From Orobanche coerulescens (lineage: Eukaryota; Streptophyta; Magnoliopsida; Lamiales; Orobanchaceae): DNA of 64,000 bases. Positions within the stretch are counted from its first letter, which is position 1. The number at the start of each line of letters is the position of its first letter. Below, piece after piece: positions 16,761-37,588 of this stretch. The position numbers were made by a program, and so were the translations under genes. A model generated the notes under the pieces. The model made no database searches. It saw only the letters and a list, made by a program, of their open reading frames with translations, and had not been told where the DNA came from. The stretch covers positions 56,762,001-56,826,000 of the forward strand of contig CM065818.1 of assembly GCA_033398695.1 (NCBI GenBank), given 5' to 3'.

Positions 16761-16916
16761 ATTCACTCTGATAGCCTCCTCAAGTGGCGATGAAATCTCT
16801 AACATACAAAGTTACCCTTGTACTCGCTGTAACCAGACCTCAATCTCGGTTCTTAGGAATTCCTGCTGAAGCGCCTTCTGAACTGTTAAACGAGCAAGCA
16901 TTTGCTCCTAAACGGA

Positions 16917-17570: not shown

Positions 17571-17609
17571 CCAAAACTCATGTTTGGAAAACTTCCCATA
17601 AAGTTGCTC

Positions 17610-18185: not shown

Positions 18186-18343
18186 ATCTCTCTATGGGGG
18201 CAAACCAGGTAACTCGTCTTGCAATACATCGGCATATTCTCTCACTATAGGAATATCCGCCAACATCATTGATGATTTCTCGGTTTTGGTCATATAGCAC
18301 CAATAACCAACACACCCCTGATTGAGTAATTTCACTGCATTCA

Positions 18344-18775
18344 TCATATTAATGACTCTACCGGACGGCTGGGATTACCTCCATGAAATACACATTCGAC
18401 TCCATTGTCTGAAATGATAATCACCATACGCTTGAGGACACTAATGATGGCATCGTCACGATCCATCCAATCAGTACCCAAGATAACGCCGTCTCTCGGT
18501 AAATCTACCATGATTAGGTTCGCCAACCAAACACGGCCATTAAGCTGAATCGGACAATTCTTAATCTCACGATCTTCGATAATTCTTCTATCGTCAGGTA
18601 AACCAATGATATAAGGTTCACAACTTGTAGCACTATCCAAATGAAGTCTACTCAAGCATGACTCGGAAATGAATGAATGCGATGCACCAGTATCAAAAAA
18701 GGTACACACAAGTTGAGATAGAATTTTGAGTGTACCTGAGATCATCCGGGCCTCCAGATCATCGGTCCTCTTCAT
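18344..18775 (-). pseudogene. Gyp1 aspartic protease
   Basis: 143 codons contain the retropepsin motif [20 protein letters not shown] (catalytic Asp in DTGA) and the later VILGTDWMDRDDAIIS block, which corresponds to the family's ILGMDWL motif. It processes the Gag-Pol polyprotein. A frameshift lies upstream, between gag and this domain, and another downstream near 18345. Confidence 0.9.
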
Positions 18776-19012
18776 CTCATAAATCCGGGGCTTGCTAGTC
18801 CCCGCACCGGACGCTCCTATCTGATGACTATGGGCTCCGCCTTTGTTTGCTCATGTCGTATTGAACGATGCGGACTGAGTGGTCTGATTCTGAACCGCTG
18901 ACTGTATCAGGGCCTGAGATGACGCTGGAGTAGGTTTGGAATCTCTTCGGAAAAAACGGGCCTTATGCCCAGCAATCCCAGAGTTATTGCACGTGATAGC
19001 TGCCTCGGACAC

Positions 19013-20014
19013 TTAGTGCTGAAATGACCAAGTTCTCCACAGTTGAAACAGGTGATGGACGAACTGGACGCTCGGGACTGAGATTCTTGAAGGTTGCCTG
19101 ACTGCCTTCAGATTGATTATGATTCTTAGACTTCTTGCTAGCAGATGAAGGTTGCTGCTTAGCAATCTCCTTAGCAGTAAGCTCATAAGAGCTTTCTCGA
19201 TGAATTCGTCCAGGGTGGTGCAATTGTGACTAAGAAATTGCATCCACATACGAGGCTTCAACCTCTTGCTGAAATACTTGATCTTGTCTACCTCAGAGTG
19301 AATAATAGATGAGGCGAAAGGAAGTAGCTCCTCGAATTTCTCGGCGATGGCGAGAACATCATCGTCCACTGAGGGTTCATGAGTGAGTAATTCTGATAAC
19401 TTGGCCTCTCTGAGTAGGGCCGGATAATACCACTCCATCATGAGAGTCTTGAATTGATCCCAAGTACAAGATCCGTCAATGGGCTTCAACGATAACCACC
19501 ATGAGTGAGCGCCCTTACCCAGATAGTAAGCCGCAACTGAAACTTTGTGCCCTTCGGGACTCTCCACCATAGTAAATAACTTCTCGAAATGCTCAAGCCA
19601 GTGAACAATATCTGCCGGCTCAGACGAGCCCTCAAAATTAGATGGTTTTTGGTGAGAGATGTCACCGATAATACTGCTCACACTCCTCTCTTGACCCTGA
19701 GGTGGCGGCGGAGGAGCATCCTGATTCTGAGTAGTTGAGTTCTGCATCGTCTCCATGAGGCATGCCATCTGTGTCATCTGGCCCATCATGCCCTGCATAA
19801 ACGCGAGTGGGTCAACCCGAACACCTTCTGATTGAGCTGTGTCCCGGGTACGACTCCCTGACAGTGAATGATCATTTCCGGGTGAATGAGTGGCAGCGTC
19901 GCTGCTCGATGAATTAGCATTAATCCTCACGTTCGCGCGTGTATTCAGAAGAGCTCTCGGGTTTCGGCCTGCACCGCGGCCTCTTCCCCCACGTCCTCTG
20001 CCAGCTCTCTCCAT
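19013..20014 (-). pseudogene. Gyp1 gag
   Basis: 333 codons start with [20 protein letters not shown], an RG-rich nucleic-acid-binding N-terminus. The capsid-type retrotransposon gag domain lies at about residues 130-290 ([48 protein letters not shown]). A frameshift near residue 290 removes the zinc knuckle from this frame; the neighbouring frame at 19223-18984 holds its damaged remains. The start is chosen by alignment with Gyp2, whose gag starts at the same Met. Confidence 0.93.
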
Positions 20015-20497
20015 ACTGAAGTAGGAAAGTCACATGATAGTTATAGATCTCGCATGAGTACCGCATTATGATTACGTTATGAAATGAAAATAATGAATAT
20101 ACGCGCTCTAACACAATGATTACACGAATGATCAACTGAGGTGACATGATTATCTGATGAAATTCTTGAAATGATTATCTTGAACAAGTTAACAAGATAA
20201 ATGATATGATCCTTACGATCAACAACTGAGCAATGAAATGAACTATGTGATTAATGAGTTAACATGATCGATATGATCAAAATGAAAAATGATGATTGAG
20301 GATTTTTGACTGTTGAATGATGAATGAGTGATTCTTATTGAAAGAAATTATACCATGGCGTCAGAAATCTAACTGTTCTTTGGTCTAAGGGGCTCGGCTC
20401 TTGCACAGGTCACACGTGACGCGAAAGTCCAATGATACTAGTCTGATGAATGATGATTTCAATGAGACATGACTCGGAAGGTAGTATTCAAAACCAC
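20015..20497 (-). other. Gyp1 5' leader
   Basis: A non-coding leader of about 480 bases lies between the primer-binding site and the gag start, rich in short ATGA/TGAATG-type repeats. I see no protein. Confidence 0.7.
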
Positions 20498-20509
20498 GCT
20501 CCGATACCA
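20498..20509 (-). other. Gyp1 primer-binding site (tRNA-iMet type)
   Basis: The minus strand reads TGGTATCGGAGC four bases inside LTR-b. This complements the 3' end of initiator tRNA-Met with one change from the usual TGGTATCAGAGC. Confidence 0.9.
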
Positions 20510-20513
20510 ACTC

Positions 20514-22647
20514 TGTAACACCCCAAACTAGGCAACTGTTACAGTGCCATGGACCCCCCGACTGGGACCCACCAAGCGAATGAAAATTTATGACTTAAAT
20601 AATATAATTGTAGTACCGAACCACATTATATCATTAATTACTCCGATGAGGAGTTTCAAGTACAACATACCCAAGATAATACCGAATACATGTATATTTT
20701 ATATGAAGATAAAATATACAACACTGAAATAAATGAGTATTCAAACGGAAATCTGCAGCGGAAATAAAATGAAGAAACACGAATGACTAAAAAGGACTTG
20801 GGCCCCTACTAGTATCACTGGGACTCCTCGCCGTCAACGTTCTCTTCCCGTGCCTTAGCGTTGCCATGACCTGAAAACAACATCCCCCAAAAGGTCAGTT
20901 ACAAAGAACAACAATCCTCAAGAGTTGAATAAACACAATCATGATATATCTGAATTATGAAATTAAGCTGAAGAGGGGCATCACAGTACGCCCGTGATGG
21001 TATGTGCAAGTGCACAAGACGAGTGTCCGGACACACCCGCCTTTGTACCTAATTATTCTCACGGAGGTACGTTACCGTGTGCACCGTCCATTGTGTCGGT
21101 GAACCCGATCACATGACTATCATGTGCCCGACTAAAAATTACACATACCCACACGGCCACACAATATGAACTCAGAAGGTCATATGAACAGGAATGACCA
21201 TAATGAACATTAATGAATAACAATCCGACAAGGTCAACAGTGGCTTACTGAGATGAAATAATAGTGAAACGAATGATAGCTCACTGAAATGATCGGAACC
21301 ATCGTTCCTCATGAATTGAATGATTAGTTTGGTAATTGCAAGTCTCAAAATGATTATTATACTATGAATGAATATGATTTATGAATGAACAACAACGAAA
21401 GGAATGAGTATCCTTTTAACCGAGTAAGAATTAACTTACTCAACACCGGTGAAGAATGTCCTTCCTCGAACAAACGTCCCACAATGAGATGTCGGTCGCT
21501 CGAACAACCTTGAATAACACAATTACCCACAATCCGTTCAATATACGTATCAAGCACGATTATAAATCACTCAAAACGTCGATACGAGCAATCCAAGTTC
21601 ATTGGGGCATTATAACAAACACGTTGTAACCAATCTTCAAGTGTTTACAACCAATCCTCAAATATATCGATACCAACCTCCAAGGAGTGATTCAATCCAA
21701 CAAAACACCTTCAACACAATCAATAATCCAGAATGAATACACAATTTGAGATTTCAACAACATCTAATCAAAAAACCCCAAATCCAAATCAATATTCAAA
21801 GTGTTCTTGAATAATCCCAATTAATCCGATGATAATCCTTAACAATTCGTAATCACAAGTATATCACTTCATATATCATGATTATCACATCCAAAACATC
21901 ATATCCCAACTTAAAATCGAAAACCAAGGTGTTGAAGAATTTACCTTTGAAGATCTAAACACTTCGATCCGGTGAAATCGTGTTAAATCGATAATACAAG
22001 CTTCCCAATCCAAGATATATGCTTATAACACTCCTACCCAAGAGATGTGATGAATAAAATCTCTCCCAAGAACTTCTCTGTCGGAACTCAAGTGAAGAAG
22101 GGGTGAAATGAGTGCAAAAATCCCGTCCAGGTCTATATAAACTGCCGAATGTTACGGCCGTAACTCAGCCTACTTACGGTCGTAACCTCTCCAAGTCAAC
22201 GGCCTTACGGCCGTGACCAGCCACATCGTACGGGCGTAACTCAGTTTAGTCGAAAGTCTGCCGATAGACTTACGGCCGTACCCGCACATGCCTTACGGGC
22301 ATAACTCGACTGATACGGCCGTACTCGGCACATTCTTACGATACACATCGCTGAATGATCCGACATACCATACTTGTATGAATATAATTGAGTCCGATAA
22401 CATGCAATAGATGATACTTCCAATACAAGACTACCCATCACGATGATTATGAAGATATTGTCATCTCGATACTCAAACGGAGATGAATGACGATTGGTAA
22501 TTGATACACGGCTAAAAATACGCCAACGATAAATACAATGAATGAACGTGAATGATGAATTATTATTAATGAGTGAAAATTACTGAGTGACAATTACTGA
22601 ATGATAATTACTGAATGATAATAAATGAATTACAACCCGGTATTACA
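20514..22647 (-). mobile_element. Shared middle LTR-b (2134 bp; Gyp1 5' LTR and Gyp2 3' LTR)
   Basis: It runs from TGTAACACCCC to GGTATTACA. It has the Gyp1 primer-binding site on its left and the Gyp2 pol 3' end on its right, so it serves both interiors. Compared with LTR-a and LTR-c it lacks about 230 bases of the palindrome-rich U3 at 22340 (TTACG joined to ATACACATCG). Its TATA box is at 22132-22141. Confidence 0.92.
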
Positions 22648-23344
22648 TACTCCGCCCCTTAAAATGAGTTTCGTCCCCGAAACTAAGGGTCAAACAACTC
22701 TGGATAACTCTCCCGCATACTATCCTCGGTTTCCCAAGTAGCCTCTTCGACTCCGTGTCTAGACCACTGAATTTTGGAATCGTCTTGTTCCTCAACTGTT
22801 TGATTCGCCACTCTAAAACTCGTATAGGACGCTCCTGATACGAATGATCATCCGCGATCTCGATTTCATCGAACTGAAGTATGTGGCTCGGGTCGGCAAC
22901 ATACTTCCTCAGCTGAGAGATGTGAAACACATTATGAATTCGGCTCAACGATGGAGGTAGAGACAATCGATAAGCCAGACTGCCGACTCGATCCAGAATC
23001 TCAAACGGTCCAATGAATCTTGGACTCAACTTTCCCTGCTTCCCGAAACGGGAGATACCTCGACTCGGGGATACCTTGACAAAAAAGTGGTCACCTACCT
23101 CGAACTCTAATGGTCGACGTCGATTATCTACATATGATTTCTGTCGACTTTGAGCAGTCAACAAACGACTTCTGATCAAACCTACCTTCTCACGGAAGGC
23201 TATAAGCATATCGGGCTTGGTGCCGATTGATTCTAATAAGTCATCCCAATATAAAGGAGATCGACAAAGACGACCGTACAAGGCCTCGTAGGGTGCCATT
23301 TTAATCGAAGCATGCCAACTATTATTATACGTGAACTCAATCAA
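22648..23344 (-). pseudogene. Gyp2 integrase C-terminal part and tail
   Basis: About 233 codons are open on the minus strand: FTYNNSWHASIKMAPYEALYGR, LLTAQSRQKSYVDNRRRPLEF, the GPFEILDRVGSLAYRLSLPPSL block and SQLRKYVADPSHIL, then RVLEWRIKQLRNKTI, after which the chromodomain-like end is lost by frameshift. The frame runs to within a few bases of the LTR. Upstream stops separate it from the integrase core. Confidence 0.9.
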
Positions 23345-24000
23345 CTATAGTTGGGCTTCCCAATCGTCTTTCCAATCGAGGACACATGCTCTCAACATGT
23401 CCTCCATCGTCTGAATAGTTCGCTCTGATTATCCGTCGGACTGAGGATGAAAAGCTGTGCTGAAATTAAGCTGAGTTCCAATAGCACGATGAACTGATTT
23501 CCAAAAATGTGACACGAATCGCCCGTCACGATCAGAAACGATACTCTTAGGAGTACCATGCAATCTCACTATCTCTTTGATGAACAACTGGGCAAGTCTC
23601 TCGGGACCCCACGTATCCTTAATCTCAAGGAAATGAGCTGACTTAGTTAAACGGTCCACAATTAACCAAATTATATTCATGCCCCGACGACTCGTCGGCA
23701 ACTCGTGATGAAGTCCATAAAAATATCTTTCCAGTTCCACTCTGGGATAGGGAGCGGTTTCAGCATACCCTTCGGTCGCAGATGTTCTATCTTGACTTGC
23801 TGACAGGTTAAGCATCTCGAAACAAATTCTGCGACTTCTCGCTTCATATTACTCCACCACTAATTTTGTTTCAAGTCTTTGTACATCTTGCTAGACCCCG
23901 AATGAATGGAATAAGGGGTAGCATGAGCTTCTCGCAAAATCGAGTTTTTCAACTCGTCGTTCGCCGGTACGCATAACCGATTCTTAAATCACAAAAGTCC
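23345..24000 (-). pseudogene. Gyp2 integrase zinc-binding domain and core
   Basis: The segment 23815-23429 carries IIWLIVDRLTKSAHFLEIKDTWGPERL and GTPKSIVSDRDGRFVSHFW, ending at FHPQSDG just before a stop (the next codon, normally Gln, is TAA). The HHCC domain at about 23985-23800 is readable in a second frame (EAHATPYSIHSGSSKM) but broken by stops. The stretch 23665-23700 holds the DRLTK block with the first catalytic Asp region. Confidence 0.88.
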
Positions 24001-25113
24001 ATCCCCGTGGACCACAAATCCAGGGGCTTTCCCCTGAGCCACATCCTCTCGGATGCGCGCCAAAAACGGGTCTGAACCCTGATTCACTCTGATCGCCACC
24101 TCAAGTGGCGATGAAATCTCTAACATACAAAGTTGCCCTTGTACTCGCTGTAAGCAGACCTCGATCTCAGTTCTTAGGAATTCCTGCTGAAGCTCCTTTT
24201 GAACTGTTAAACGAGCAAGCATTTGCTCCTGATCGGACGTACGACTCAAGGAGTCGGAGACCACGTTCGCCTTGCCCGGGTGGTACAGGATCTCAATATC
24301 ATAATCTTTGATTAGTTCCAACCACCACCTCTGTCGCATATTTAACTCCTTCTGAGTAAATATATACTTCAAACTCTTATGATCGGTGAAAATCTAGCAG
24401 GTGACGCCATAAAGGTAATGATGCCAAATCTTCAACGCGAAAACCACGGCTGCTAGTTCAAGGTCATGGGTCTGGTAATTGACCTCGTAAGGTCTCAATT
24501 GCCGCGAAGCATAGGCAATAACTTTCCTGTTCTGCATTAATACACATCCAAGACCGTGTCCGGATGCGTCACTATAAACCACGAATCATTCCGTCCCTTG
24601 CGGTAAAGAAAGGACAGGTGCTGAAATTAACCGACTCTTAAGTTCCTCAAAATTCTGTTGACATACGTCGGACCACGTGTATTTCTTATCCTTCCATAAA
24701 AGGTTCGTCATGGGTTGAGCAATTTTAGAAAATCCTTCCACAAATCACCGATAATAACTAGCTAATCCGAGGAAACATCTAATTTCCTTAACATTCTTTG
24801 GAGGTTGCCAATCTCGGATAGCCTCCGTCTTCTGTGGGTCGACACGTACTCCGTCTGATGAAATCACATGTCCGAGAAACGTCACTTCGGACATCCAAAA
24901 CTCATATTTGGAAAACTTCCAATAAAGTTGCTCTCGTCTCAACACTTCGAGAACCTGATGAAGGTGAAATCCGTGCTCCTCTCGGTCATGAGAATAAATC
25001 AAAATGTCGTCAATGAAGACAACCACGAACTGATCCAAATAGTCGATGAAAACCCAATTCATTAATTCCATGAACACCGCAGGTGCATTAGTTAATCCAA
25101 ACGGCATTACCAT
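23989..25113 (-). pseudogene. Gyp2 RT (3' half) and RNase H, in three open pieces
   Basis: 25113-24745: [27 protein letters not shown] (catalytic pair intact), thumb with [20 protein letters not shown]. 24582-24394: RNase [21 protein letters not shown] and [14 protein letters not shown]. 24372-23989: [16 protein letters not shown] through [16 protein letters not shown] into the linker before integrase. Each junction is a single stop or a small indel. Confidence 0.92.
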
Positions 25114-25218
25114 AAACTCATAATGACAATAGCGTGTTCAAAACGCCATTCTAGCGATATCTGACTCTCGAATTCGCAACTGATGATATCCAGATCTTAA
25201 ATCGATCTTGGAAAATAC

Positions 25219-27402
25219 TTAAGCTCCCTGAAGTTGATCTAAGAGATCATCGATACGGGGTAGAGGATATTTATTATTGATCGTCACCCTGTTCAATTCC
25301 CGGTGATCAATACACAAGTGAAACGAACCATCCTTCTTCTTGACAAATAACACAGGTGCTCCCCACGGGGACACACTCGGTTGGATATAACCTTTCTCGG
25401 TCAAATACTCCAATTGATTCTTCAGTTCTTGCATTTCGGTCGGGGCCATCCGATATAGTGCCTCCGATATTGGGGATATACCAGGCTCCAACTCTATTGT
25501 GAATTCCACATCCCTCTGTGGGGGCAAACCAGGTAACTCATCTGAGAATACATCAGCATATTCTCTCACTACCGGAATATCCGCCAGCATCAGTGATGAT
25601 TTCTCGGTTTTGGTCATATAGCACCAATAACCAACATATCTCTGATTGAGTAATTTCACTGCTTTCATCATATTAATGACTCTACCGGAACGGCTGGGAT
25701 TACCTCCCTGAAATACACATTCGACTACAACGTCTGAAATGATAGTGACCATACGCTTGCGGACACTAATGATAGCATCGTTACGATCCATCCAATCAAT
25801 ACCCAAGATAATGTCGTCTCTCGGTAAATCTATCATGATCAGGTTTGCCAACCAAACACCGCCATTAAGCTGAATCGGAAAATTCTTAATCTCACGATCT
25901 CCAATAATTCTTCTACCGTCAGGTAGACCAATGATATAAGGTTCACAACTAGTAGCACTATCCAGATGAAGTCTACTCAAGCATGACTCGAAAATGAATG
26001 AATGCGATGCACCAGTATCAAAAAGGGTACACACAGGTTGAGATAGAATTTCCAGTGTACCTGAGATCATCCGGGCCTCCGGATCGTCAGTCCTCTTCAT
26101 CTCATAAATTCGGGGCTTGCTAGTCCCCGCACCGGACGCTCCTGTCTGATGACTATGGGCTCCGCCTTTGTTTGCTCCTGTCGTCTTGAACGACGCGGAC
26201 TGAGTGGCCTGATTCTGAACCGCTGACTGTATCGGGGCCTGAGATGACGCCGGAGTATGTTTGGAGTCTCTTCGGCAAAAACGGGCCTTATGCCCGGCAA
26301 TCCCATAGTTATTGCATGTGATAGTCTGTCTCGGACACTTGGTGCTGAAATGACCAAGTTCTCCACAGTTGAAGCAGGTGATGGCCGAACTGGCTGCTCG
26401 GGACTGAGATTCCGCGGGTCTAGGTGACATAGGAGGTCTCTCAGAAAAAGTAGGTCCCACACAAGGCTTCTTGAAGCTTTCCTGATTGCCTTCAGGTTGA
26501 TTACGATTCTTAGACTTCTTGCTAGCAGATGTAGGTTCCTGCTTAGCAATCTCCTTAGCAGTAAGCTCATAAGTAAGAGCTTTCTCGATGAATTCGGCCA
26601 TGGTGGTGCAATTGTGATTAAGAAATTTCATCTGCATACGAGGATTCAATCTCTTGCTGAAATACTTGATCTTGTCCGCCTCAGAGTGAATAATAGATGA
26701 GGCGAAAGGAAGTAGCTCCTGGAATTTCTCGGCGATGGCGAGAACATCATCGTCCGCTGAGAGGTCGGAAGTGAGTAATTCTGATAACTTGGCCTCTCTA
26801 AGTGAGGCCGGATAATACCTCTCCATCATGAGAGTCTTGAATTGATCCCAAGTACAAGATCCGTCGGTGGGCTTCAACGATAACCACCATGAGTGAGCGC
26901 CCTTACCCAAATAGTAAGCCGCAACTGAAACTTTGTGCCCTTCGGGACACTCCACCATAACAAATAACTTCTCGAAATGCTCAAGCCAGTGAACAATATC
27001 CGCCAGCTCAGACGAGCCCTCAAAAGTAGGTGGTCTTTGGCAAGAGATGTCGCCGATAATACTGCTCACACTCCTCTCTTGACCCTGAGGTGGCGGCGGA
27101 GGAGCATCCTGATTCTGAGTAGCTGAGTTCTGCATCGTCTCCATGAGGCGTGCCATCTGTGTCATATGGGCCATCGTGCCCTGCATAAACGCGAGTGGGT
27201 CAACCCGAACACCTTCTGATTGAGCTGTGTCCCGGGTACGAATCCCTGACAGTGAATGATCATTTCCGGGTGAATGAGTGGCAGCGTCGCTGCTCGATGA
27301 ATTAGCATTATTCCTCACGTTCGCGCGTGTATTCAGAAGAGCTCTCGGGTTTCGGCCTGCACCGCGGCCTCTTCCCCCGCGTCCTCTGCTAGCTCTCTCC
27401 AT
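25219..27402 (-). pseudogene. Gyp2 gag-protease-RT(N) polyprotein, 727 codons open
   Basis: This is the longest open frame in the window. It starts with an RG-rich tail (residues 1-20). The capsid domain is at about 130-290. Two zinc knuckles follow: [14 protein letters not shown] near residue 340 is intact, and [14 protein letters not shown] near 358 has its second Cys changed to Tyr. The protease has [13 protein letters not shown] (DTGA near 461), and the RT N-terminus has [18 protein letters not shown] near 680. It ends at a TAA in the QLQGA-stop-VFSKIDL context, right at the RT active-site motif. Gag and Pol are fused in one frame, as in this chromovirus group. The remaining RT carries further stops, so no active enzyme is made. 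Confidence 0.95.
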
Positions 27403-27761
27403 ACTGAAGTAGGAAAGTCACATGATAGTTATAGATCTCGCATGAGTACCGCATTATGATTACGTTATGAAATGATAATAATGAGCATACGCGCTCTAAC
27501 ATAATGATTACATGAATGATCAACTGAGGTGACATGATTATGTGATGAAATTATTGAAATGATTATCTTGAACAAGTTAACAAGATTAATGATACGATAC
27601 TTACAATCAGCAACTGAGCAATGAAATGAACTGAGTCATTAATGAATTAACATGATCGATATGATCAAAATGAAAATGATAATTGAGGATTGTTGACTGT
27701 TGAATGATGAATGAGTGATTCTTATTGCCAGAAATTATACCATTGCGTCAGAAATCTTATG
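27403..27761 (-). other. Gyp2 leader, truncated, no primer-binding site
   Basis: The leader matches that of Gyp1 (20015-20380) up to GCGTCAGAAATCT, then jumps to LTR sequence TACAGTGG. About 130 bases of leader, the primer-binding site and the first two dozen bases of the LTR are gone. Gyp2 could not prime reverse transcription. Confidence 0.8.
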
Positions 27762-30102
27762 TACAGTGGCGTGGACTTCCCGACTGGGACCCACCAGGCG
27801 AATGAAAATTTATGACTTAAATAATATAATTGTAGTACCGAACCACATTATATCATTAATTACTCCGATGAGGAGTTTCAAGTACAACATACCCAAGATA
27901 ATACCGAATACATGTATATTTTATATGAAGATAAAATATACAACACTGAAATAAATGAGTATTCAAACGAAAATCTGCAGCGGAAATAAAATGAAGAAAC
28001 ACGAATGACTGCAAAGGACTGGGGGCCCCTACTAGTATCACTGGGACTCCTCGCCGTCAACGTTCTCTTCCCGTGCCTTAGTCTTGCCATGACCTGAAAA
28101 CAACATCCCCCAATGGGGTCAGTTACACAGAACAACAATCCTCAAGAGTTGAATAAACACAATCATGATATATCTAAATTATGAAATTAAGCTGAAGAGG
28201 GGCATCACAGTACGCCCGTAATGGTATGTGCAAGTGCACAAGACGAGTGTCCGGACACACCCGCCCTTGTACCTCATTAGTATCACGGAGGTACGTTACC
28301 GTGTGCACAGTTCATTGTGTCGGTGAACCCGATCACATGACTATCATGTGCCGACTAAAATTTCCACACATCCCCACCCGGCCACGCAATATGAACCTAG
28401 AAGGTCATATGAATAGGAATGATCATAATGAACATTAATGAATAACAATCCGACAAGGTCAAGAATGACTCACCGAGATGAAATAATAGTGAAATGAATG
28501 ATAGCTCACTGAAATGATCGGAACCGTCGTTCCTCGTGAATTGAATGATTAGTTTGGTAATTACAAGTCTCAACATGATTATTATACTATGAATGAATAT
28601 GATTTATGAATGAACAACAACAAAAGGAATGAGTATCCTTTTAACCTAGTAAGAATTAACTTACTCAACACCGGTGAAGAATGTCCTTCCTCGAACAAAC
28701 GTCCCATAATGAGATGTCCGTCGCTCGAACAACCTTGAATAACATAATTACCCACAATCCGTTCAATATACGTATCAAGCACGATTATAACTCACTCAAA
28801 ACATCGATACGAATAATCCAAGTTCATTGGGGCATTATAACAAACACGTTGTAACCAATCTTCGAGTGTTTACAACCAATCCTCAAATATATCGATACCA
28901 ACCTCCATGGAGTGATTCAATCCAACAAAACATCTTCAACACAATCAATAATCCAAAATGAATACACAATTCGAGATTTCAACAACATCTAATTGAAAAC
29001 CCCCAAATCCAAATCAATATTCAAAGTGTTCTTGAATAATCCCAATTAATCCGATGATAATCCTTAACAATTCGTAATCACAAGTATATCACTTCATATA
29101 TCATGATTATCACATCCAAAACATCATATCCCAACTCAAAATCAAAAACCAAGGTGTTGAAAAATTTACTTTTGAAGATCCAAACACTTCGATCCGGTGA
29201 AATCGTGTTAAATCGACTATCCAAGCTTGCCAATCCAATATATATGCTTAGAACACTCCTACACAAGTGATGTGATGAAGAAAATCTCTCCCAAGAACTT
29301 CTCTGTCGGAACTCAAGTGAAGAAGGGGTGAAATGAGTGCAAAAATCCCGTCTAGGTCTATATAAACTGCCGAATGTTACGGCCGTAACTCGGCCTACTT
29401 ACGGCCGTAACCTCTCCAAGTCAACAGCCTTACAGCCGTGACCAGCCACATCGTACGGGCATAACTCGGTTTCGTCGAAAGTCTGCCGACAGACTTACAA
29501 CCGTACCCGCACATGCCTTACGGGCGTAACTCGACTGATACGGTCGTACTCGGCACATTCTTACGGGTGTATGAAGCCTTCGTCGAAACTGACCGGACAC
29601 CCTGCTCGAAATCGTACGACTGTAACCGGCCAAGCCTTATGGCCGTACCTGCCTCAACTTACGGCCGTATGCTGCAACCTTTATGGCCGTAAGTACCCTT
29701 CGTCCGACATTACCTAAAAACAACGAATGCAAGTTACGGCCGTAATGCAAGCATGTTATGGCCGTAACTCGCTGTTGTATGCCAACGAAACGATAATTCT
29801 GTCTACTCGATACACATCGCTGAATGATCCGACATACCATAATTGTATGAATATAATTGAGTCCGATAACATGCAATAGATGATACTTCCAATATAAGAC
29901 TACCCATCATGATGATTATGAAGATACTCTCGTCTCGATACTCAAACGGAGATGAATCACGATAGGTAATTGATACACGGCTAAAAATACGCCAACGATG
30001 AATACAATGAATGAACGTGAATGCTGAATGATTATTAATGAATGAAAATTACTGAGTGACAATTACTGAATGATAATGAATGAATTACAACCGGGTATTA
30101 CA
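27762..30102 (-). mobile_element. Gyp2 LTR-c (5' LTR, edge-deleted)
   Basis: It matches LTR-a from TACAGTG onward and ends GGGTATTACA at 30102. The palindrome array (29380-29770) and TATA box (29358-29367) are complete. The first bases (TGTAACACCCCAAACTAG...) are deleted together with the adjoining leader. CCGAC follows it, matching CCGAT before LTR-a in four of five bases. Confidence 0.9.
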
Positions 30103-30389: not shown

Positions 30390-31897
30390 TGTTGGGAACA
30401 GTACACTAGGACATTCGATGTGTCTAGATTTATAATTGTCACATTTAAGTAAAAAGTTATTTGATATCATTTATTTCTCGTTGATTATTATAATGTGTGC
30501 ATGTTTTAATATTATAATAATCGAATAATAGTTATTCACGAATAATAGTTATTCACGAATAATAAGATTATTCAAATGTCCCTAGTACAACTGCGTTGAG
30601 TAGAGACTCAAGTGATTAATATACTAGTATAATTTTGATTGTTAATCATCGGATGATTATGTGTATGGTACAGATCAATCTTATGGGTATTGGTTGGAAA
30701 ACTAATACTGGACAGACCCGCATTGAGATCACTGCATGGAAATGTCATAAGTGAATATCAATATAATAGTATGTCAATAAATCCTTGAACCTGAGATTAT
30801 CCTAAATTCCAACATGATAACTGATGTGCCTTGATGTAATCCAACGTCATCTGAAACATGGTGATCATAAAGGATAGCGATCGGGATTAGTGGGAGTCAT
30901 GTAGAGGGCAATGAATAATCAAGATGGGGATTTGTCCCTCTCTTTTGTGAGAGAGATATCTGCTGGGCCACTCGATAAGTTGGACTGAAAGAAATGCATG
31001 GTCATGCTCAAATGAAGAGTCATTTGATTCAATCAGTCTACTTAAGATCGAGAAAGCATTTTAACATAATAAGTATGACAATCTCTATAACTTAGTTCAA
31101 ATATGATATCGCGTGACAAAGGGATTTGACACATTAAAAGGTTTAATAGACTATTAACTTATATTATTTGGGTAATCATAATGTCTTGATAGAGGCCGTT
31201 TATGATTTATTATTTAATAAGGTATTAAATAATTGCCAACATAATATAAGCCTTTGGGTCGCACATACGAAAATTATAGACAAGCAGGAATAAATATCAA
31301 CTGGGAATAATAAATATAATATTGGATATTATATTTATAAGGAGATTAAATAATAAGTAATATATAATATTGGATATTATATATATTATATTATTTAATA
31401 AGATGAGGGGTAACTAAGCAAATACTAGATTCTTGAATCTAGGGATTACTTAGTATAAATAAGAGATCCATGACAAGGAGTTGTCATAAGAAATCAACAT
31501 AAAATCCTCCCCCCCCCCCCAAAGAAGAAAGAAAAAAATCGGCCTCCACCTCTTACTGTTGGAGAACGAAGTCGGTCATCTTCTTCCCTTAGTTGATCTT
31601 GATCAATAGTACAATCCTTCTAGTAAGGAATTTGTGTTGTACTATTTATCAATATTATTCGTAAGGATCTAGCAATCCGGCTTGTGGAATTGTTCGTGTG
31701 TGGATCACCCAAAGAGGAAGGAGATATTCATCTGCTTATAGCCGGATCTAGACCTGTTCGTCGGAGTAAGGTAATTCGATTAACCTTTCAAACAAACAAT
31801 TAAATTACTGCATGAGATCCTTAACTAGATTTTCATACTTATTCTTCCGCTGCGTTTTACTCTTGATTTATGTATTCGATGCATGAAAAGCCCAACA
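30390..31897 (+). mobile_element. Cop3 5' LTR (1508 bp)
   Basis: It begins TGTTGGGAAC and ends AAGCCCAACA (TGTTGGG/CCCAACA inverted ends), followed at once by a primer-binding site. A TATA box TATAAATAAG is at 31454-31463. A run of 12 C lies near 31509-31520 in the R region. The partner 3' LTR is absent because the element is replaced by gypsy sequence at about 34225. Confidence 0.9.
31454..31463 (+). promoter_or_regulatory. Cop3 LTR TATA box
   Basis: TATAAATAAG lies about 435 bases before the LTR end, a normal U3/R position. Transcription would start near 31485-31495; this start is inferred from spacing. Confidence 0.6.
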
Positions 31898-31898
31898 G

Positions 31899-31910
31899 TG
31901 GTATCGGAGA
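31899..31910 (+). other. Cop3 primer-binding site (tRNA-iMet type)
   Basis: TGGTATCGGAGA follows the LTR end by one base, complementary to the 3' end of initiator tRNA-Met with one or two changes. Confidence 0.88.
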
Positions 31911-32169
31911 CAACCTGCAAGTAATTTAATTGTTTATATAGAACATGTTTATGTGTAAATTATGTTCTTGATTATGTTTATAAAATATAGATTGCAAAAA
32001 ATAATTTTTCCTAGTTTAATTTGATTAAATTGGATCGTCAAAAATTAATTTTCTGGACTGTTTTCGCGAATTTCTGCTCCAGAACTATTCTGGAACAGAT
32101 CTGTTTCGAGACGGGTCGGGTCGGGTCGGATCTGGACCAGCGGGTCGTTTTAATTAGCAAAAGACTTTT

Positions 32170-32240
32170 GTTATGAGAGGAGTTTGATCCCTTGACAATA
32201 GGAAACACCGGAACTGACTTACCAAGTGGTCTACCATTTT
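32170..32240 (-). other. tRNA-like module 1 (antisense)
   Basis: On the minus strand an A-box-like motif TAGACCACTTGG (32222-32233) is followed 31 bases later by a B-box-like motif GGGATCAAACTCC (32179-32191). The D-arm pairs GAC with GTC around a GG-containing loop. The anticodon arm is degenerate and no clean acceptor stem is seen. Not a functional tRNA gene. Confidence 0.55.
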
Positions 32241-32311
32241 ATTTTGGAAATAACACACGGAAGTTTTTATAAAAGGTAAAGAAATCTGCTTTAAATATTG
32301 CAAAATATTTT

Positions 32312-32382
32312 GCAAAATGCGGGGATCGATCCCGAACCTCTCGGCTTTATATCCGGCGCTTTTCCATCTACGCTGGCCGTGT
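32312..32382 (-). other. tRNA-like module 2 (antisense)
   Basis: The minus strand has CAGCGTAGATGG (A-box-like, 32364-32375) and GGGATCGATCCCC (B-box-like, 32321-32333). The T-arm folds as CGGG/CCCG around ATCGATC, and the D-arm as GCG/CGC around TAGATGGAAAA. A weak anticodon stem CGG/CCG is possible. It sits 142 bases after module 1, box to box. Confidence 0.6.
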
Positions 32383-32454
32383 GAAGGTGATAATGTATCA
32401 CAGATTTTATATTATAAGATCAATATGTTTCAAACCAAATGTTCCAAACTGATT

Positions 32455-32530
32455 TGTAGCTCGCGGGTTTCGAACCCGCGTGGTTCTGTTGTAGAACTCT
32501 GACTGGACCAATTGGGCTGCAGGTCTGGAT
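32455..32530 (-). other. tRNA-like module 3 (antisense), best preserved
   Basis: The minus strand has CAGCCCAATTGG (A-box-like, 32508-32519) and GGGTTCGAAACCC (good B box, 32465-32477). The T-arm GCGGG/CCCGC with loop TTCGAAA is perfect. The anticodon arm GTTC/GAAC has a seven-base loop (32483-32497). It sits 144 bases after module 2. Confidence 0.7.
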
Positions 32531-33586
32531 TGTTGATTTGTAACACAATTTTTTTATTTATTGTCTGATTGTCACACAGATTTATTATTTAGTATATTAC
32601 GTGCTTTTATTAATTATTTGATAATTATTTATGGTATATGTATGGTGTGTGGCATGACCATAAATTGACCAATATGATTGGATATATTATTTCTTTATGG
32701 GTTGGTTCTACGGCTTGCATGTCGTTTAATTATAATTGGTTTTACGGCCTGCGAGTCATCTATTGTTTTACGGCCTATGTGTCGTTTTCACCTTTTGTAA
32801 TTTAATTTACTAGTGTAGTGTTAAATTTTATTAACGTAATGAAGACAAGAAGGACGAGGAGGACATACTCGAGGAGACAATTGATCGTGTAGGACGTCCC
32901 AAGGAGTTGGGCAGATCAATGAAGAACAAATGCAACCTTTTAGATTGACCCTTGTGATTTTCATGTTGGCTCATGGAAATCACGTTAGGAATTATGGTCA
33001 TGCTATACACGGTCATATGCTTTTATTGTCATGTGATGCGATGTATGTTTAAATTTATGCATGTATGTGATGCTATGTATGTTTAAATGTATGTTAGCAA
33101 ACATAGACATATACATAGGATAAAATCCCTCGTTAAAATTTTTAAATATCGTTCAATTAAAACACCTATCAAGACTTCGATCATCTTGAGCAGGTCATGC
33201 CAAAGCTGGGTGCCTGGATTATATTAGTAAGGTGGGATGGGTAGTGGTGATACCTATATGTTTTTATGAACTAAGAATTCAAAAGAGTTTTGAACCTTAA
33301 GGCATAAGATGGGATTATAACATGCTTGGGCATAAGATGTCAAATCCCATGAATATAATCTAAGAGTTACATATGATGTAATCGATAAAGAGTTATCCAC
33401 CTAAAATAGCACAATTATAGGCGTCATACCAAAGCTAAGTTTTGAATTGTGCAAAATGGGGTCTTAGCCCACTAAAATTACAATTGTAGTAAAATTGAGG
33501 GTACTTTGTTTTAGTGTGAGTATTTTTAGAGAAATAAAATAATGTAAGTAAATACTTTGCATAATGAATTTTATATATAATATAGA

Positions 33587-34225
33587 ATGGCATCAAACAA
33601 CATGTCCACCATTTCACTGCGATCCGTCCTTGAGAAGGACATGCTCAAAGAAAACAGCAGCAATTATCTGGATTGGATCCAGATCTTGAGAACAGTTCTC
33701 AATCAAGAAAGAAAGTTGTATGTTCTTGAGGAAGAAATTCCCGATGTGCCTGCTGGCAATGCTAACAAAGAAATAAAAGACAAATGAAAGAAATATTGTG
33801 ATGATTCCATTGATGTCAGTTGTCTTATGTTGGCTACCATTTGTCCAGAACTTGAGAAGAATCTGGAGAAAATGGAAGCTTATGAGCTAAATGCACACCT
33901 CAAGGAAACTTTCTCGAAGCATGCTAGGCAAGAGAGGTATGAGACCTTTCAAGCCTTGTATGCTTGCAAGATGGTTGAGGGGACATTTGTCAGCGCTCAT
34001 GTACTCAAGATGAAAGGATATATTGATCATCTTGAGAGGCTTGGTTTTCCACTTTCTAAGGAGCACTCCATGGATGTGATCCAAAACTCATTGCCCGATA
34101 GTTTCGGTCAGTTCATTATGAACTATAATATGAATGAAATGGAGAAGTCTATTGCTGAGCTGCATGTGATGCTTAAAACGGCTGAGCAGAATATTAAGAA
34201 GAAACCAAGCCACGTGCTGATGGTC
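33587..34225 (+). pseudogene. Cop3 copia gag (one stop, 3' end replaced)
   Basis: The ATG at 33587 opens a copia gag: MASNNMSTISLRSVLEKDML, then NSSNYLDWIQILRTVLNQER (typical N-terminal gag). A TGA stop at about 33785 sits where relatives have Trp (DK-stop-KKYCDD). The frame then continues, with LATICPELEKNLEKMEAYEL, ETFQALYACKMVEG, HVLKMKGYIDHLERLGFPLS and NSLPDSFGQFIMNYNMN. After about 34225 the sequence switches to gypsy RNase H. Zinc knuckle, protease and pol are absent. Confidence 0.9.
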
Positions 34226-34611
34226 AGCAAATGGAAGTCCTTGTGGTGTTTGCATTGAAGATTTGGAGACACTATTTATATGGTTCTTCTTGTCGAGTGT
34301 ATACGGATCATAAGAGATTGAAGTATATATTCACGCAGAAGGAGTTTAATATGCATCAATGGCGATGGTTGGAATTGATTAAAGATTATGATCTTGACAT
34401 TCTTTACCATCCAGGTAAAGCGAATGGCGTTGCCGATGCTTTGAGCTGCAAGTCAGTCGTGTTGCGGAGATTGGAATTACTTACCATTCAACCAGAGCTC
34501 AGACGTGAGTTATTTGATCTAGAGATTGAAGTTTGGCCTCAAAGATCTCAAGGAAAATTACGTTTCCTCGAGATTACGTCCTCTGTAATGGAAGATATTA
34601 AGTCCAAATAG
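34226..34611 (+). pseudogene. Gyp3 RNase H (3' part)
   Basis: The gypsy sequence starts inside RNase [38 protein letters not shown] (catalytic Asp in TDHK), [19 protein letters not shown], then the linker to integrase, ending in a TAG stop at 34609. Gag, protease, RT and 5' LTR are missing. The join with Cop3 gag at about 34225 has no visible LTR or target duplication. Confidence 0.9.
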
Positions 34612-35600
34612 TTGAACGATCTCTTATTTATGCAGCTTCGGGAAGACGTTGTTAAACGAAAGGCTCCTGGATTTTTAATCGATCAAGACGGAGTTCTTTG
34701 GTTTCGAGGTAGAACTTGTGTACCTAAGTGGGATGATCTCAAGCAAGTGATTTTGAATGAAGCACATTCTACTCCGTACTCGATTCATCCGGGTACGAGT
34801 AAAATGTATAAAGACTTGAAGAAAAAATTTTGGTGGTGGAACATGAAGAAGGATGTAACGGAATTCGTGTCGAAATGCTTGACTTGTCAACAGGTTAAAG
34901 CTGAGCATCAAAGATCTGCCGGGAAGTTACAACCGTTACCAATTCCGGAATGGAAGTGGGAAGACATCGCGATGGATTTTATTGTGGGAATGTCAAGGAC
35001 ACAAATCGGAACGAATATGATTTGGGTAATCGTAGATTGGTTAACCAAATCAGCACATTTTCTGGGCATTAGAGATACTTGAGGACCAGAGAGGTTAGCT
35101 CGTTTGTTCATTGCAGAGATTGTGAGACTCCATGATACCCCAAAGAGTATTGCTTCGGATCGCGATGGTTGTTTGGTGTCACATTTCTGGCATGCAGTAC
35201 ATCAAGCACTACCGAACTGAATTTTAGTACCGCTTATCATCTTCAGACGGATGGACAGTCGGAGAGAATGATCCAAACATTGGAATACATGTTAAGGGCT
35301 TGTGTGTTGGATTGGAAAGAAGATTGGTAGATTCATTTACCATTGATCATATTTGCGTATAATAATAGTTGGCATTGTTCGATTGGAATGGCTCTGTTTG
35401 AAACATTATATGGAAGACGATGTAGATCGCCAATTTGTTGGGATGAACCATACGAGTTACTTGGAGTTGAACCGGACTTAATGATTCAAACACGGGAAAA
35501 AGTCGCAGTTATTCGACAAAGGTTCTTGACCGCCTAAAGTCGACAGAAGTCATGTGCCGACGTTCGACATCGACCATTAGAGTTTCAGGCAGGAGATCAT
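34612..35600 (+). pseudogene. Gyp3 integrase, broken
   Basis: 34612-35082: HHCC domain (NEAHSTPYSIHPGTSKMYKDL, KCLTCQQ) and core start (AMDFIVGMSRTQIGTNMIWV; VDWLTKSAHFLGI where relatives have VDRLTK). A TGA stop at 35080 replaces the Trp of DTWGPERLA. 35083-35340 is broken by a frameshift near 35215 (KSIASDRDGCLVSHFW still readable). 35343-35537 holds FAYNNSWHCSIGMALFETLYGRR. A stop near 35535 replaces Gln of LTAQSRQ. Confidence 0.9.
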
Positions 35601-36035
35601 GTGTTGTTGAAAGTATCGCTAACTCATGGATTTCTTCGGTTTGGTAAGAAGGGGAAGCTTAGTCCTCGTTATATTGGTCCCTTCGAGATCCTGGACAAGG
35701 TAGGTGATGTAGCTTATCGACTAGTGTTACCTCCGACGCTTAGTCATGTTCATAACGTGTTCCATGTTTCTCAATTGCGTAAGTATGTTCCCGATCCCAG
35801 TCATGTTATTGATTATCAAGAGATTGAAGTTAATGATGATGTTTCATATGAAGAGCAACCGGTAGCCATATTGGAGCAGCGAGTGAAAACAATTGCGACG
35901 GAAAGCGATTCTGCTAGTGAAGGTCCAATGGTCTAAACATGGAATTAAGGAAGCCACGTGGGAAACCGAAGATAGTGTGAGTTCCCGATACCTTGAACTT
36001 TTCGAATGTTAAGTTTCGGGATGAAACTTCTTTTT
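35601..36035 (+). pseudogene. Gyp3 integrase tail / chromodomain-like end
   Basis: 111 codons (to 35936) carry GKKGKLSPRYIGPFEILDKV, LPPTLSHVHNVFHVSQLRKY and PVAILEQRVKTIATESDSA. A frameshift then leads to VKWSKHGIKEATWETEDSVS-type sequence in the next frame (35925-36000), which is the chromodomain-like end. Typical of Tekay/Del chromoviruses, where this tail is thought to direct integration. Confidence 0.88.
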
Positions 36036-36047
36036 ATGGGGTAAGGG
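36036..36047 (+). other. Gyp3 polypurine tract
   Basis: ATGGGGTAAGGG immediately precedes the LTR start TGTAATATCCG. Confidence 0.75.
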
Positions 36048-37588
36048 TGTAATATCCGTGTATTTTACATATATTATTTTGGTTGTATCTTGTTGTAATG
36101 TGGATTATGTGGAGATGAGTGTATTGATGAATTGATATTTGGAATGTTCATGATTTTTAATCGTCGAGTTTTGTGATTTTCGGAGGTGTTCGTTCTGGAC
36201 AGACTGCAGGATTTGGGGCATAGGGGTTACGGCCGTAAGGCATTTTGAGTTACGGCCGTAAGGCACTGCCGATTACGCCCGCAACGCACCCGCAAAAAAT
36301 GGACAGAAGCCTCGGCAGGACTCGCTATGGCCGTAAGGGAAGGCCGGTTACGGCCGTAAGATACAGGTCGAGTACGGCCGTAATGTAGCTGCCGAGTACG
36401 ACCGTAAGGTGTCGAGCATTACGGCCGTAATGTTTGGCTGAGTAACGGCCGTAATACGCGTGGGTGTTTTTTGCAGTAGCCTGTCAGGACCCGTTACCGC
36501 CGTAAGGCACTGCTGGTTACGGCCGTAACACACTTGGCTGTATAAGTCCGAGTGACGGGTCTTGTAAACATTTTATTCATTTTTCTTCCTCCTTCTCGAT
36601 TCTTCGGGAGATTTTGATAATTTTGATCCAGAGCATCACTGAGCATTATTTTGGGAAGTTTGATTCGTGTCTAACATCATTCTCCACTCAAGTTCCATCC
36701 GAATCAAGGTAAAATTCCTTCAAATCCCTAGTTCATATGTTGGGGTTTTCGCTTAGATCTTCAATTTTACTCCGTTCCAGCTCTAATTAATGTTAGATTA
36801 TGATGTTATAATCAGGGTCCTTCATTTTTCCATGAAGTTCATGTTAAATTCCAAGTTTTCCTCCATAGTTTGAACTCGAACCACCTTTTGTCTTCATAGT
36901 GTTCGATTAAATGCCCCTAAGGGTAAAACTTAGGGTGAATCCTTACGTTTCCATGGTGTTGTGTTTAATTTGGTATTTCGATATGTTAGGATCGAATTGT
37001 TGTAGGAAGTCGGACCGTACGTTCAACCGTTCGTTGTTTCTCGTGTCGTTCGAATTGAGGCAAGTACTTTGATTGTGTTTAATGTACTTCTTGTGAATAT
37101 ATGAGAAAACGTGATTTTGAGAAAATGTGATTTGTGCCAAAGTGATGTTTTCAAAAGTTCGACGTGTGTCGCGTGCCAAGTAAAACTAGTGTGGGTCCCC
37201 TGGGTTCCGTAGACTGAGGCCTCTGCGGCTCACTTGGCTGGGTTTGTACAACCAGGGAGGCCTGACGAGGGCTCACTGGGGAGAGGTATATCTCGCGTGG
37301 GGTACAGTACCTGTACAGCCCCCGTTGATGTTTTTATGATGATGATTATGATGTAGTATTCCAAAATATCTGTGATGGAACTGTGATTTTTGTGATTTAC
37401 GTTGATTATTCACTTGTTGTACATATTCTAGAATCATTGTACTTGCACCGGCTTCTGCTGACCCCTTCGGGGGTGGATATACTTTTGTGTATTCAGGTAC
37501 AGGTCCAGTGGGAGAGCCAGCACAGGGCGGACACGAGCTTGGTGGGCAACATTGATATCGTGCACTATTTTGAGTCGGTGGTCGTATG
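36048..37588 (+). mobile_element. Gyp3 3' LTR, first part
   Basis: It starts TGTAATATCCG after the polypurine tract and is interrupted at 37588 by Gyp4. It resumes at 47315 and ends GGGGTGTTACA at 47632. Combined length is about 1.86 kb. It contains TTACGGCCGTAA-type palindromes (36225-36530) directly before a TATA box. Confidence 0.88.
36225..36547 (+). promoter_or_regulatory. Gyp3 LTR palindrome array and TATA box
   Basis: About ten copies of TTACGGCCGTAA or near variants occur in 300 bases, followed by TATAAGTCC at 36541. This is the same order as in the Gyp1 LTRs, on the opposite strand and in a different LTR family. Confidence 0.7.

What the first reader, a model, noticed from the sequence alone, without database searches (positions are those of the whole stretch)
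32170..32530. Three evenly spaced antisense tRNA-like modules in a copia leader
On the minus strand of the Cop3 leader, A-box-like motifs start at 32222, 32364 and 32508, and B-box-like motifs at 32179, 32321 and 32465. Both series are spaced 142 and 144 bases. All three have T-arm-like hairpins; module 3 has a perfect one. This is a three-copy array, not chance. It could be a trimeric SINE-like insertion, a set of internal Pol III promoters giving antisense RNA over the leader, or RNA structure used in packaging or priming control. I know of no named element with this layout, but I cannot search.
Basis: partly seen in the sequence, partly recalled or inferred. Interest (0 to 1): 0.82.

Follow-up and report, generated by a model that had tools for sequence, protein, structure and literature searches.

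The report
Antisense Pol III units in retrotransposon
The untranslated leader of a plant jumping gene carries a short row of small RNA-gene promoters, mostly with a stop signal behind each, all pointing backwards against the element; this layout did not turn up in our searches and suggests that the element makes its own small antisense RNAs.

Summary
In detail: three antisense modules, A-to-B distance 43 in each, spacings 142 and 144; modules 3 and 2 are the best A/B-box sites of the 64 kb. The window lies in an unnamed 3.65-Gb genome (a plant, judged by gag relatives). The modules recur there in 39 further leader copies and in 15 clusters under 85% identity. Of modules scoring 20 or more in 51 orientable loci, 54 are antisense and 0 sense.

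They are not tRNAs: ARAGORN and Rfam's tRNA model find none, acceptor stems are absent, and middles fold no better than shuffles. Between two families the boxes are kept (74-81% identity) while the sequence between them is near random (34-37%). Independently of detection, TTTT follows within 40 nt in 136 of 145 modules, against 20% of random places; CAA precedes most M1 and M3 units.

Best reading: a conserved tandem array of RNA polymerase III type-2 transcription units, antisense in the leader. Transcription and function are inferred, not shown.

The parts
30390..31897 (+). 5' LTR of the copia element, TGTTGGG ... CCCAACA termini
   Evidence: sequence, termini located; no second copy of this LTR in the window
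31899..31909 (+). primer binding site TGGTATCGGAG, one base away from the complement of the 3' end (with CCA) of initiator tRNA-Met
   Evidence: the tRNA-iMet gene sequence was recalled and occurs exactly twice in the genome
31910..33586 (+). untranslated leader that holds the array
   Evidence: between PBS and gag start
32508..32519 (-). unit 3 A box CAGCCCAATTGG
32466..32476 (-). unit 3 B box GGTTCGAAACC, inside a 5-of-5 T-stem
32530..32535 (-). two CAA triplets upstream of unit 3 (possible start site)
   Evidence: read; CAA in the 16 nt upstream in 70 of 73 M3-class modules. The window copy has no TTTT between the unit 3 A box and the unit 2 B box
32364..32375 (-). unit 2 A box CAGCGTAGATGG
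32322..32332 (-). unit 2 B box GGATCGATCCC
32314..32317 (-). unit 2 oligo-T terminator, 4 nt after the B box
   Evidence: TTTT within 13 nt after the unit 2 B box in 38 of 40 family copies
32222..32233 (-). unit 1 A box TAGACCACTTGG
32180..32190 (-). unit 1 B box GGATCAAACTC (weak form I; many copies carry form II GGTTCGAACCC)
32159..32162 (-). unit 1 oligo-T (possible terminator), 17 nt after the B box
33587..34230 (+). copia gag (Retrotran_gag_2 in the second piece) with an in-frame stop at 33785-33787; at about 34230 it gives way to Ty3/gypsy RNase H sequence
   Evidence: the junction is read by eye

Best explanation
The leader of this plant copia lineage carries a tandem array of RNA polymerase III type-2 transcription units, all antisense to the element (three in the window family, two in the Z family, up to four seen). 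Each unit has an A box, a B box about 44 nt further on and, in nearly all modules, an oligo-T stretch 4-20 nt (medians) after the B box; a CAA triplet lies just upstream of most unit 1 and unit 3 modules. TFIIIC should bind the boxes and place Pol III to make short antisense RNAs (about 70-105 nt) over the leader, between PBS and gag. Boxes, distance, T-runs and orientation are kept between families while the RNA body is not, so selection acts on the promoter and on being transcribed (or on TFIIIC/Pol III occupancy), not on a tRNA fold or one RNA sequence. Shown: anatomy, recurrence, orientation, box conservation, absence of a tRNA fold. Inferred: transcription in cells. Inferred further: the benefit to the element, most likely control of its own RNA or chromatin by Pol III occupancy or by leader-antisense RNA. 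Antisense placement would also keep Pol III signals out of the sense RNA.
For: Boxes conserved, middle not. Window-family set (40) versus Z-family set (30): A2 .744, B2 .771, A3 .808, B3 .807 against .336 and .365 for the middles and .578 for the unit 3-unit 2 spacer; boxes .78 vs the rest of the array .47, Mann-Whitney p 4e-5; unit 2 alone, whose boxes were not part of the search pattern, p .0036. Among 15 cluster representatives: boxes .76-.89, middles .46-.58. A-B distance 44 in 48 of 64 modules, range 40-47, the scan allowing 38-48. Orientation 54 antisense to 0 sense in 51 orientable loci of 60. Features not used for detection (classes by T-stem and loop letters): TTTT within 40 nt after the B box in 65 of 73 M3, 45 of 46 M2 and 26 of 26 M1 modules, against .203 of 14,146 random positions on the same strand; CAA in the 16 nt upstream in 70 of 73 M3, 22 of 26 M1 and 22 of 46 M2, against .312 for random 15-nt windows. 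Angiosperm tRNA genes show poly(T) in 67-73% and CAA within 50 nt in 79-82% (within 10 nt 36-45%; PMC11700998, passages). No TTTT inside M1 (0 of 25) or M3 (0 of 72) bodies. Genome pattern search: 128 matches against 1 for the reversed-pattern control.
Against: No expression, Pol III or TFIIIC data here. AAAA, a control, lies within 40 nt after .92 of 25 M1 B boxes (.31 for M3.36 for M2), so for M1 the T-run may only reflect AT-rich sequence; CAA in control windows 40-55 nt upstream is .54 for M3.24 for M2 and .15 for M1, so the CAA excess for M3 is less than the random figure suggests. TTTT occurs inside 5 of 42 M2 bodies. In the window copy unit 3 has lost its own TTTT and unit 1 has weak boxes. 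CAA is not regular in M2. Outer T-stem pairs are partly kept in M1 and M3. Among recent copies the boxes of units 2 and 3 are no more conserved than their surroundings, as expected for dead copies, and between families other parts of the leader are as conserved as the boxes (.73-.81). Copies are not independent and all come from one genome. Pattern-fetched loci, and the choice of the Z seed L057, are biased towards intact M1 or M3 boxes.
Confidence: 0.7

Rival explanations
1. TFIIIC-only sites: the boxes are kept to bind TFIIIC as a chromatin boundary, tether or roadblock ('extra TFIIIC' sites, recalled), with little or no transcription.
For: Box and distance conservation with a free middle needs only TFIIIC binding; 21 of 25 neighbour spacings are 130-159 nt, close to a nucleosome length (recalled).
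Against: A T-run after almost every B box and CAA upstream of most unit 1 and unit 3 modules are features of transcribed units; TTTT is absent from M1 and M3 bodies.
Confidence: 0.15
2. Passenger: an old tRNA-derived or SINE-like unit inserted antisense in an ancestral leader, duplicated in tandem and carried along without function.
For: A/B boxes with tRNA spacing point to tRNA descent; unit 2 of the window family aligns best with recalled tRNA-Ala and tRNA-Phe (46 and 43 for copy L017); the three units are alignable; the Z family shows short extra matches beside the main one.
Against: Between families boxes and T-runs are kept while the middles are near random; unit 1 exists in two forms with unrelated middles but A and B boxes in both; a passenger should decay evenly.
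Confidence: 0.12
3. Priming or packaging signal: the sense leader RNA, antisense to tRNA, anneals to D and T arms of the primer tRNA, as the extra complementary boxes of yeast Ty1 and Ty3 do.
For: Polarity is right; Ty1 and Ty3 use complementarity to the T and D arms of tRNA-iMet (PMC4974528, PMC5371799, passages). Duplexes with iMet beat shuffled modules by about 2.5 s.d. or more for three unit 2 sequences (window, L017, L059) and for the L067-type M3 (-60.7 against -42.2, s.d. 5.1). The unit 2 B box has the A54 of initiator tRNA (recalled).
Against: For 11 of 12 modules tested iMet is not the best alignment partner, and for all 12 it is not the best duplex partner, among ten tRNAs (nine are recalled, unverified controls). 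The T-runs and CAA motifs of the antisense strand are unexplained.
Confidence: 0.06
4. Structured RNA element (tRNA-like structure) on either strand, used for RNA stability, movement or particle packaging.
For: Unit 3 of the window folds better than shuffles on the minus strand (z -2.82), and the 381-nt minus strand of the whole array does too (z -2.63); T-stem pairing is kept across module types (411 of 540 against 366.8 re-dealt).
Against: Units 1 and 2 of the window fold no better than shuffles; no RF00005 hit (and 64 with 8 of the 39 copies); ARAGORN 0 in 39 copies; middles fold at z about 0 on both strands; acceptor stem 2.60 of 7 pairs against 2.69 re-dealt; within one module type T-stem pairing does not exceed re-dealing.
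Confidence: 0.04

Closest known systems
Helenus (TRIMp3; tRNA-derived Pol III promoter in an LTR retroelement; Kojima 2024, PMC10886601: outline, passages and section 10 part 1 of 2 read)
   Same: tRNA-derived A and B boxes inside an LTR element, boxes conserved while the tRNA is usually not functional; Copia-mobilised in fungi
   Different: Helenus are short non-coding TRIMs with the tRNA-like part in the LTR; here the boxes are in the leader of a gag-bearing copia, antisense and in arrays, most with a T-run behind them. The word 'antisense' occurs 0 times in that paper's main text
Cassandra (5S rRNA promoter in the LTR of a plant TRIM; seen in the passages)
   Same: Pol III promoter carried by a plant LTR element
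   Different: 5S-type promoter, in the LTR of a non-coding TRIM; not described there as an antisense array
Pol III miRNA units of bovine leukemia and foamy viruses (search listing only)
   Same: Pol III units inside reverse-transcribing elements, as a miRNA cluster in bovine leukemia virus
   Different: animal viruses whose products are miRNAs; here the RNA body is not conserved and the units are antisense. The strand of the viral units was not checked here
Antisense MIR in intron 1 of Polr3e (Yeganeh et al., Genes Dev 2017, PMC5358760; start of abstract in the listing)
   Same: a conserved antisense Pol III unit that interferes with expression of the gene around it
   Different: a single SINE in a mammalian host gene, not part of a retrotransposon's own leader
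Plant tRNA genes (PMC11700998, passages) and tRNA-derived SINEs (recalled)
   Same: CAA upstream, A box, B box, poly(T) downstream
   Different: no acceptor stem or tRNA fold; 29 of 30 fetched pattern loci lie in related copia leaders
Ty1 and Ty3 extended primer-tRNA complementarity (PMC4974528, PMC5371799, passages)
   Same: element RNA complementary to D and T arms of tRNA, in Ty1 downstream of the PBS
   Different: no preference for iMet in most modules; repeated units with T-runs

Membership tests
RNA polymerase III type-2 transcription unit | A box and B box at tRNA-like distance | tested here: met
   A-B distance 44 in 48 of 64 modules, range 40-47 with 38-48 allowed; boxes conserved between families
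RNA polymerase III type-2 transcription unit | oligo-T terminator shortly downstream | tested here: met
   136 of 145 modules within 40 nt, against .203 at random places; for M1 the AAAA control is nearly as frequent; the window's own unit 3 lacks one
RNA polymerase III type-2 transcription unit | CAA start motif upstream (plants) | tested here: inconclusive
   M3 70 of 73, M1 22 of 26, M2 22 of 46, random .312; control windows .54.15 and .24 for M3, M1 and M2
RNA polymerase III type-2 transcription unit | transcribed by Pol III | not testable with these tools
   no expression or ChIP data
tRNA gene or tRNA-like structure | cloverleaf with acceptor and anticodon stems | tested here: not met
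tRNA-derived SINE insertion | free insertion, copies at many unrelated sites and in both orientations | tested here: not met
   29 of 30 fetched pattern loci group with copia leaders; 54 antisense, 0 sense
tRNA-derived SINE insertion | target-site duplication and 3' tail around the array | not tested
   no systematic search was made
Helenus / TRIMp3 | tRNA-derived sequence in the LTRs of a short non-coding TRIM | tested here: not met
   boxes lie in the leader, 283-622 nt after the LTR, of an element with gag
Ty1/copia LTR retrotransposon (host element) | TG...CA LTR, tRNA-Met PBS, copia-type gag | tested here: met
   pol is missing in this copy, so the lineage was not assigned
Ty1/Ty3-type primer annealing boxes | complementarity specific to the primer tRNA-iMet | tested here: not met
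   iMet is the best alignment partner in 1 of 12 modules and the best duplex partner in 0 of 12

The most novel reading that the evidence does not exclude
A lineage of coding plant copia retrotransposons encodes its own family of small antisense RNA genes: tandem Pol III units in the leader, read against the genomic RNA, kept by selection on promoter and terminator while the RNA sequence drifts. They would act as a built-in regulator, by Pol III/TFIIIC occupancy and leader-antisense RNA, of transcription, reverse transcription or silencing of the element. No such antisense Pol III array was seen in the listings of the ten literature searches made here, seven of them on this topic.
Probability: 0.45. 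Interest if true: 0.87.

Novelty: new variant of a known kind. Interest (0 to 1): 0.75.

Why it matters
LTR retrotransposons are generally regarded as Pol II elements; the Pol III exceptions found in the reading done here are short non-coding TRIMs with the promoter in the LTR, and some animal retroviruses with miRNA units. A conserved antisense Pol III array in the leader of a coding copia lineage would mean that the element carries a second transcription programme against itself. It would give a direct handle on how such elements control copy number or escape silencing, and it points to a class of Pol III-promoter-like loci that tRNA annotation passes over because they do not fold as tRNAs. 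It could be tested at once with small-RNA, Pol III and TFIIIC data from plants.

Tried and rejected
tRNA genes: ARAGORN found none in the window or in 39 copies. Rfam at gathering score on the window, and at E up to 10 on the leader, the three modules and 8 of the 39 copies, gave no RF00005, only T-arm fragments of tmRNA and plastid UTR models and other weak hits. A D-stem plus T-stem score of my own did not separate single modules from Markov sequences; the box log-odds scan replaced it.

Relatives outside the genome: viral contigs gave none in three scans; genome contigs gave one contig, probably a contaminant, with only about 140 nt before gag (L001); a protein search with a leader ORF gave nothing. 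Primer-tRNA annealing was tested with iMet and nine recalled plant tRNAs and is not supported for most modules. Strand test in T-stems: G.T 56 against A.C 36, a mild lean to the minus strand, not relied on. A read-through dimer RNA from unit 3 to unit 2 is not the rule, as only 2 of 40 and 3 of 38 copies lack TTTT between them. The shuffled expectation for TTTT was replaced by random positions in the same leaders, a fairer control. Classes go by T-stem and loop letters, so a few unit 1 modules with A54 (L043, L045, L059, L065) are counted under M2, and a few rows (such as L042, L074, L093, L106) may be chance sites; none was dropped from the counts.

Papers: the ten searches are on this topic; on analogues; one search returned none, and the listings of 22, 54, 79, 89 and 99 were capped below their totals. 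No paper with an antisense Pol III array in an LTR-element leader was seen in them. Only open-licence full texts are held, so absence from print is not shown.

Full report
Setting. The element is a Ty1/copia fragment: 5' LTR 30390-31897 with TGTTGGG/CCCAACA ends, a PBS one base away from the complement of the initiator tRNA-Met 3' end, a leader of about 1.7 kb, and gag from 33587 with an in-frame stop at 33785-33787. The second gag piece matches Retrotran_gag_2 and has 194 homologues, of which 120 were listed; those that bear a name are from plants. At about 34230 the sequence changes to Ty3/gypsy RNase H and integrase, so pol and the 3' LTR of the copia are missing in this copy.

The observation. 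Modules, coordinates and spacings are as stated. Single modules are not remarkable by a loose structural score, but by A/B-box log-odds modules 3 and 2 are the best sites in the window, with equal inner distance and the stated spacing. The three units also align as diverged tandem copies, mainly through the box parts.

Recurrence. The leader DNA finds 45 matches in the genome (3068 first-look candidates, only 40 scored, so a lower bound). I fetched 39 further places. Units 2 and 3 are recognisable in nearly all of them. Main exceptions: L048 lacks most of unit 1, L047 is rearranged there, L035 lacks the B-box end of unit 1, L041 lacks the A box of unit 1, and L033 lacks the A box of unit 2. 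Unit 1 comes in two forms whose middles are unrelated but which both carry A and B boxes. A pattern built from antisense B box, 25-40 free bases and antisense A box matches 128 places against 1 for the reversed control. Of the 30 of these that were delivered as loci, 29 join one group of related leaders by DNA similarity and L075 stands alone; some of the 30 are elements already fetched before. They carry arrays; 21 of 25 neighbour spacings are 130-159 nt, and where a PBS is found it mostly lies a few hundred nt before the array. A query from a diverged family (Z, seed L057) gave 49 matches and 30 loci, with unit 3 and unit 2 types and no unit 1; under strict scoring many of the 30 show only one unit, and three (L086, L094, L108) none. 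Nine of the 49 are short extra matches beside a long one, which suggests added copies of part of a unit.

Orientation. Of 60 loci (seven overlapping duplicates left out), 51 could be oriented by gag or PBS and nine could not. The 51 hold 54 modules scoring 20 or more on the strand opposite to gag and none on the same strand. At a cut-off of 14, four of the 51 have no antisense module, 28 have one, 14 two, four three and one four; strict scoring of decayed copies misses units.

What is conserved. Among recent copies of one family the boxes of units 2 and 3 show no special conservation (.94-.96 against .92-.95 for the spacers), as expected for dead copies; in unit 1 the boxes (.83-.84) exceed the middle (.74) because of the two forms. 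Between families the picture changes. Fifteen clusters at 85% identity give mean pairwise identity of .82.78.89.76.79 and .82 for A1, B1, A2, B2, A3 and B3, against .58.46 and .47 for the three middles and .54-.66 for the spacers. These loci were fetched by an M1 or M3 box pattern, so only unit 2 is free of that bias. The comparison of two sets fetched by long DNA queries gives the same: boxes .74-.81, middles .34-.37, unit 3-unit 2 spacer .58, the rest of the leader .73-.81 (the Z seed itself came from the pattern search). So the array is a fast-evolving island in a conserved leader, and inside that island the boxes stand out.

Not a tRNA. The middles have no fold above shuffles on either strand (mean z -0.16, 0.00, 0.20 for M3, M2, M1 on the minus strand; 0.99 for the three L067-type middles), and acceptor stems pair at the level of re-dealt partners (2.60 against 2.69 of 7). 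T-stem pairs are kept across module types (411 of 540, re-dealt 366.8) but not beyond re-dealing within a type. Against this, unit 3 of the window folds better than shuffles (z -2.82), and so does the 381-nt minus strand of the whole array (z -2.63).

Transcription-unit features that were not used to find the modules. TTTT follows the B box within 40 nt in 65 of 73 M3, 45 of 46 M2 and 26 of 26 M1 modules, against 20.3% of 14,146 random positions on the same strand. Grouped by downstream sequence, a majority of members has it in 13 of 15, 12 of 13 and 13 of 13 groups. CAA lies in the 16 nt before the unit in 70 of 73, 22 of 46 and 22 of 26, against 31.2% for random 15-nt windows (sums over the groups listed there). 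Two controls temper this: AAAA is nearly as frequent as TTTT behind M1 (.92 of 25.31 for M3 and .36 for M2), and CAA in windows 40-55 nt upstream is .54 for M3.24 for M2 and .15 for M1. For comparison, angiosperm tRNA genes have poly(T) downstream in 67-73%, CAA within 50 nt upstream in 79-82% and within 10 nt in 36-45% (PMC11700998, passages). TTTT is absent from the bodies of M1 and M3 (0 of 25, 0 of 72) and present in 5 of 42 M2 bodies. In the window copy unit 2 has its T-run at 32314-32317 and unit 1 one at 32159-32162, while unit 3 has none before unit 2.

Mechanism. The simplest account is a tandem array of Pol III type-2 units reading antisense through the leader. TFIIIC would bridge A and B boxes, Pol III would start near the CAA just before the unit and stop at the T-run. 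The anatomy is shown; transcription and function are inferred. Because the RNA body drifts, a trans-acting RNA of fixed sequence is unlikely. An effect in cis (occupancy, interference with sense Pol II, opening of chromatin) or an RNA that always matches its own leader (antisense pairing) fits better. The orientation bias fits an element that must keep Pol III and tRNA-processing signals out of its genomic RNA (inference).

Rivals. TFIIIC-only binding is the closest rival; T-runs and CAA motifs argue against it. A passive relic is argued against by the contrast of boxes and middles. The primer-tRNA idea, inspired by Ty1 and Ty3, was tested: iMet is the best alignment partner of 1 of 12 modules and the best duplex partner of none, although its duplexes with three unit 2 sequences and the L067-type M3 do beat shuffles. 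Nine of the ten reference tRNAs were recalled; only iMet was verified.

Known relatives. Helenus and Cassandra are TRIMs with Pol III promoters in their LTRs. Some animal retroviruses carry Pol III miRNA units (listing only). The listings of the ten searches, seven on this topic, showed no antisense Pol III array in the leader of a coding LTR element. The survey of plant LTR elements PMC6317226 has 0 occurrences of the word 'leader' in its main text (only passages read). I therefore call this a new variant of a known kind (Pol III promoters carried by LTR elements).

Limits. One genome, non-independent copies, no expression data, lineage not assigned, and loci biased in part by the pattern search.

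Noticed in passing
window 34198-36048: The copia gag runs into Ty3/gypsy RNase H and integrase on the same strand at about 34230, apparently followed by a gypsy LTR start (read by eye): a chimeric junction or nested remnant.
   Followed up: partly
window 12965-30085: Long segments with gypsy-type coding sequence are repeated in tandem at 93-95% identity (such as 12965-14794 with 20514-22340 and 15014-19086 with 22339-26412, again from 27758), which looks like a large tandem duplication.
   Followed up: no
window 9578-10518: Tandem array of a 57-bp unit, 16.5 copies.
   Followed up: no
L001 (NZ_VCHY01000049.1), 1-3620: A contig filed under the bacterium Labilibacter sediminis encodes a copia gag (51% identity): probably plant contamination in that assembly.
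   Followed up: partly
unit 2 in the window and in most copies and families seen: The B box of unit 2 has A at tRNA position 54 (GGATCGA), a mark of initiator tRNA (recalled), yet window-family unit 2 aligns better with recalled tRNA-Ala and tRNA-Phe than with iMet.
   Followed up: yes
G000 C18:24739451, C7:154867788, C17:142639009, C1:172495501 and others: In the Z family extra copies of part of the unit 2 region lie beside the main match, so unit number may change by tandem duplication.
   Followed up: no
window 32180-32519 and related loci: Unit spacing of about 141-159 nt is close to the length of nucleosomal DNA (recalled); whether this is more than coincidence was not tested.
   Followed up: no
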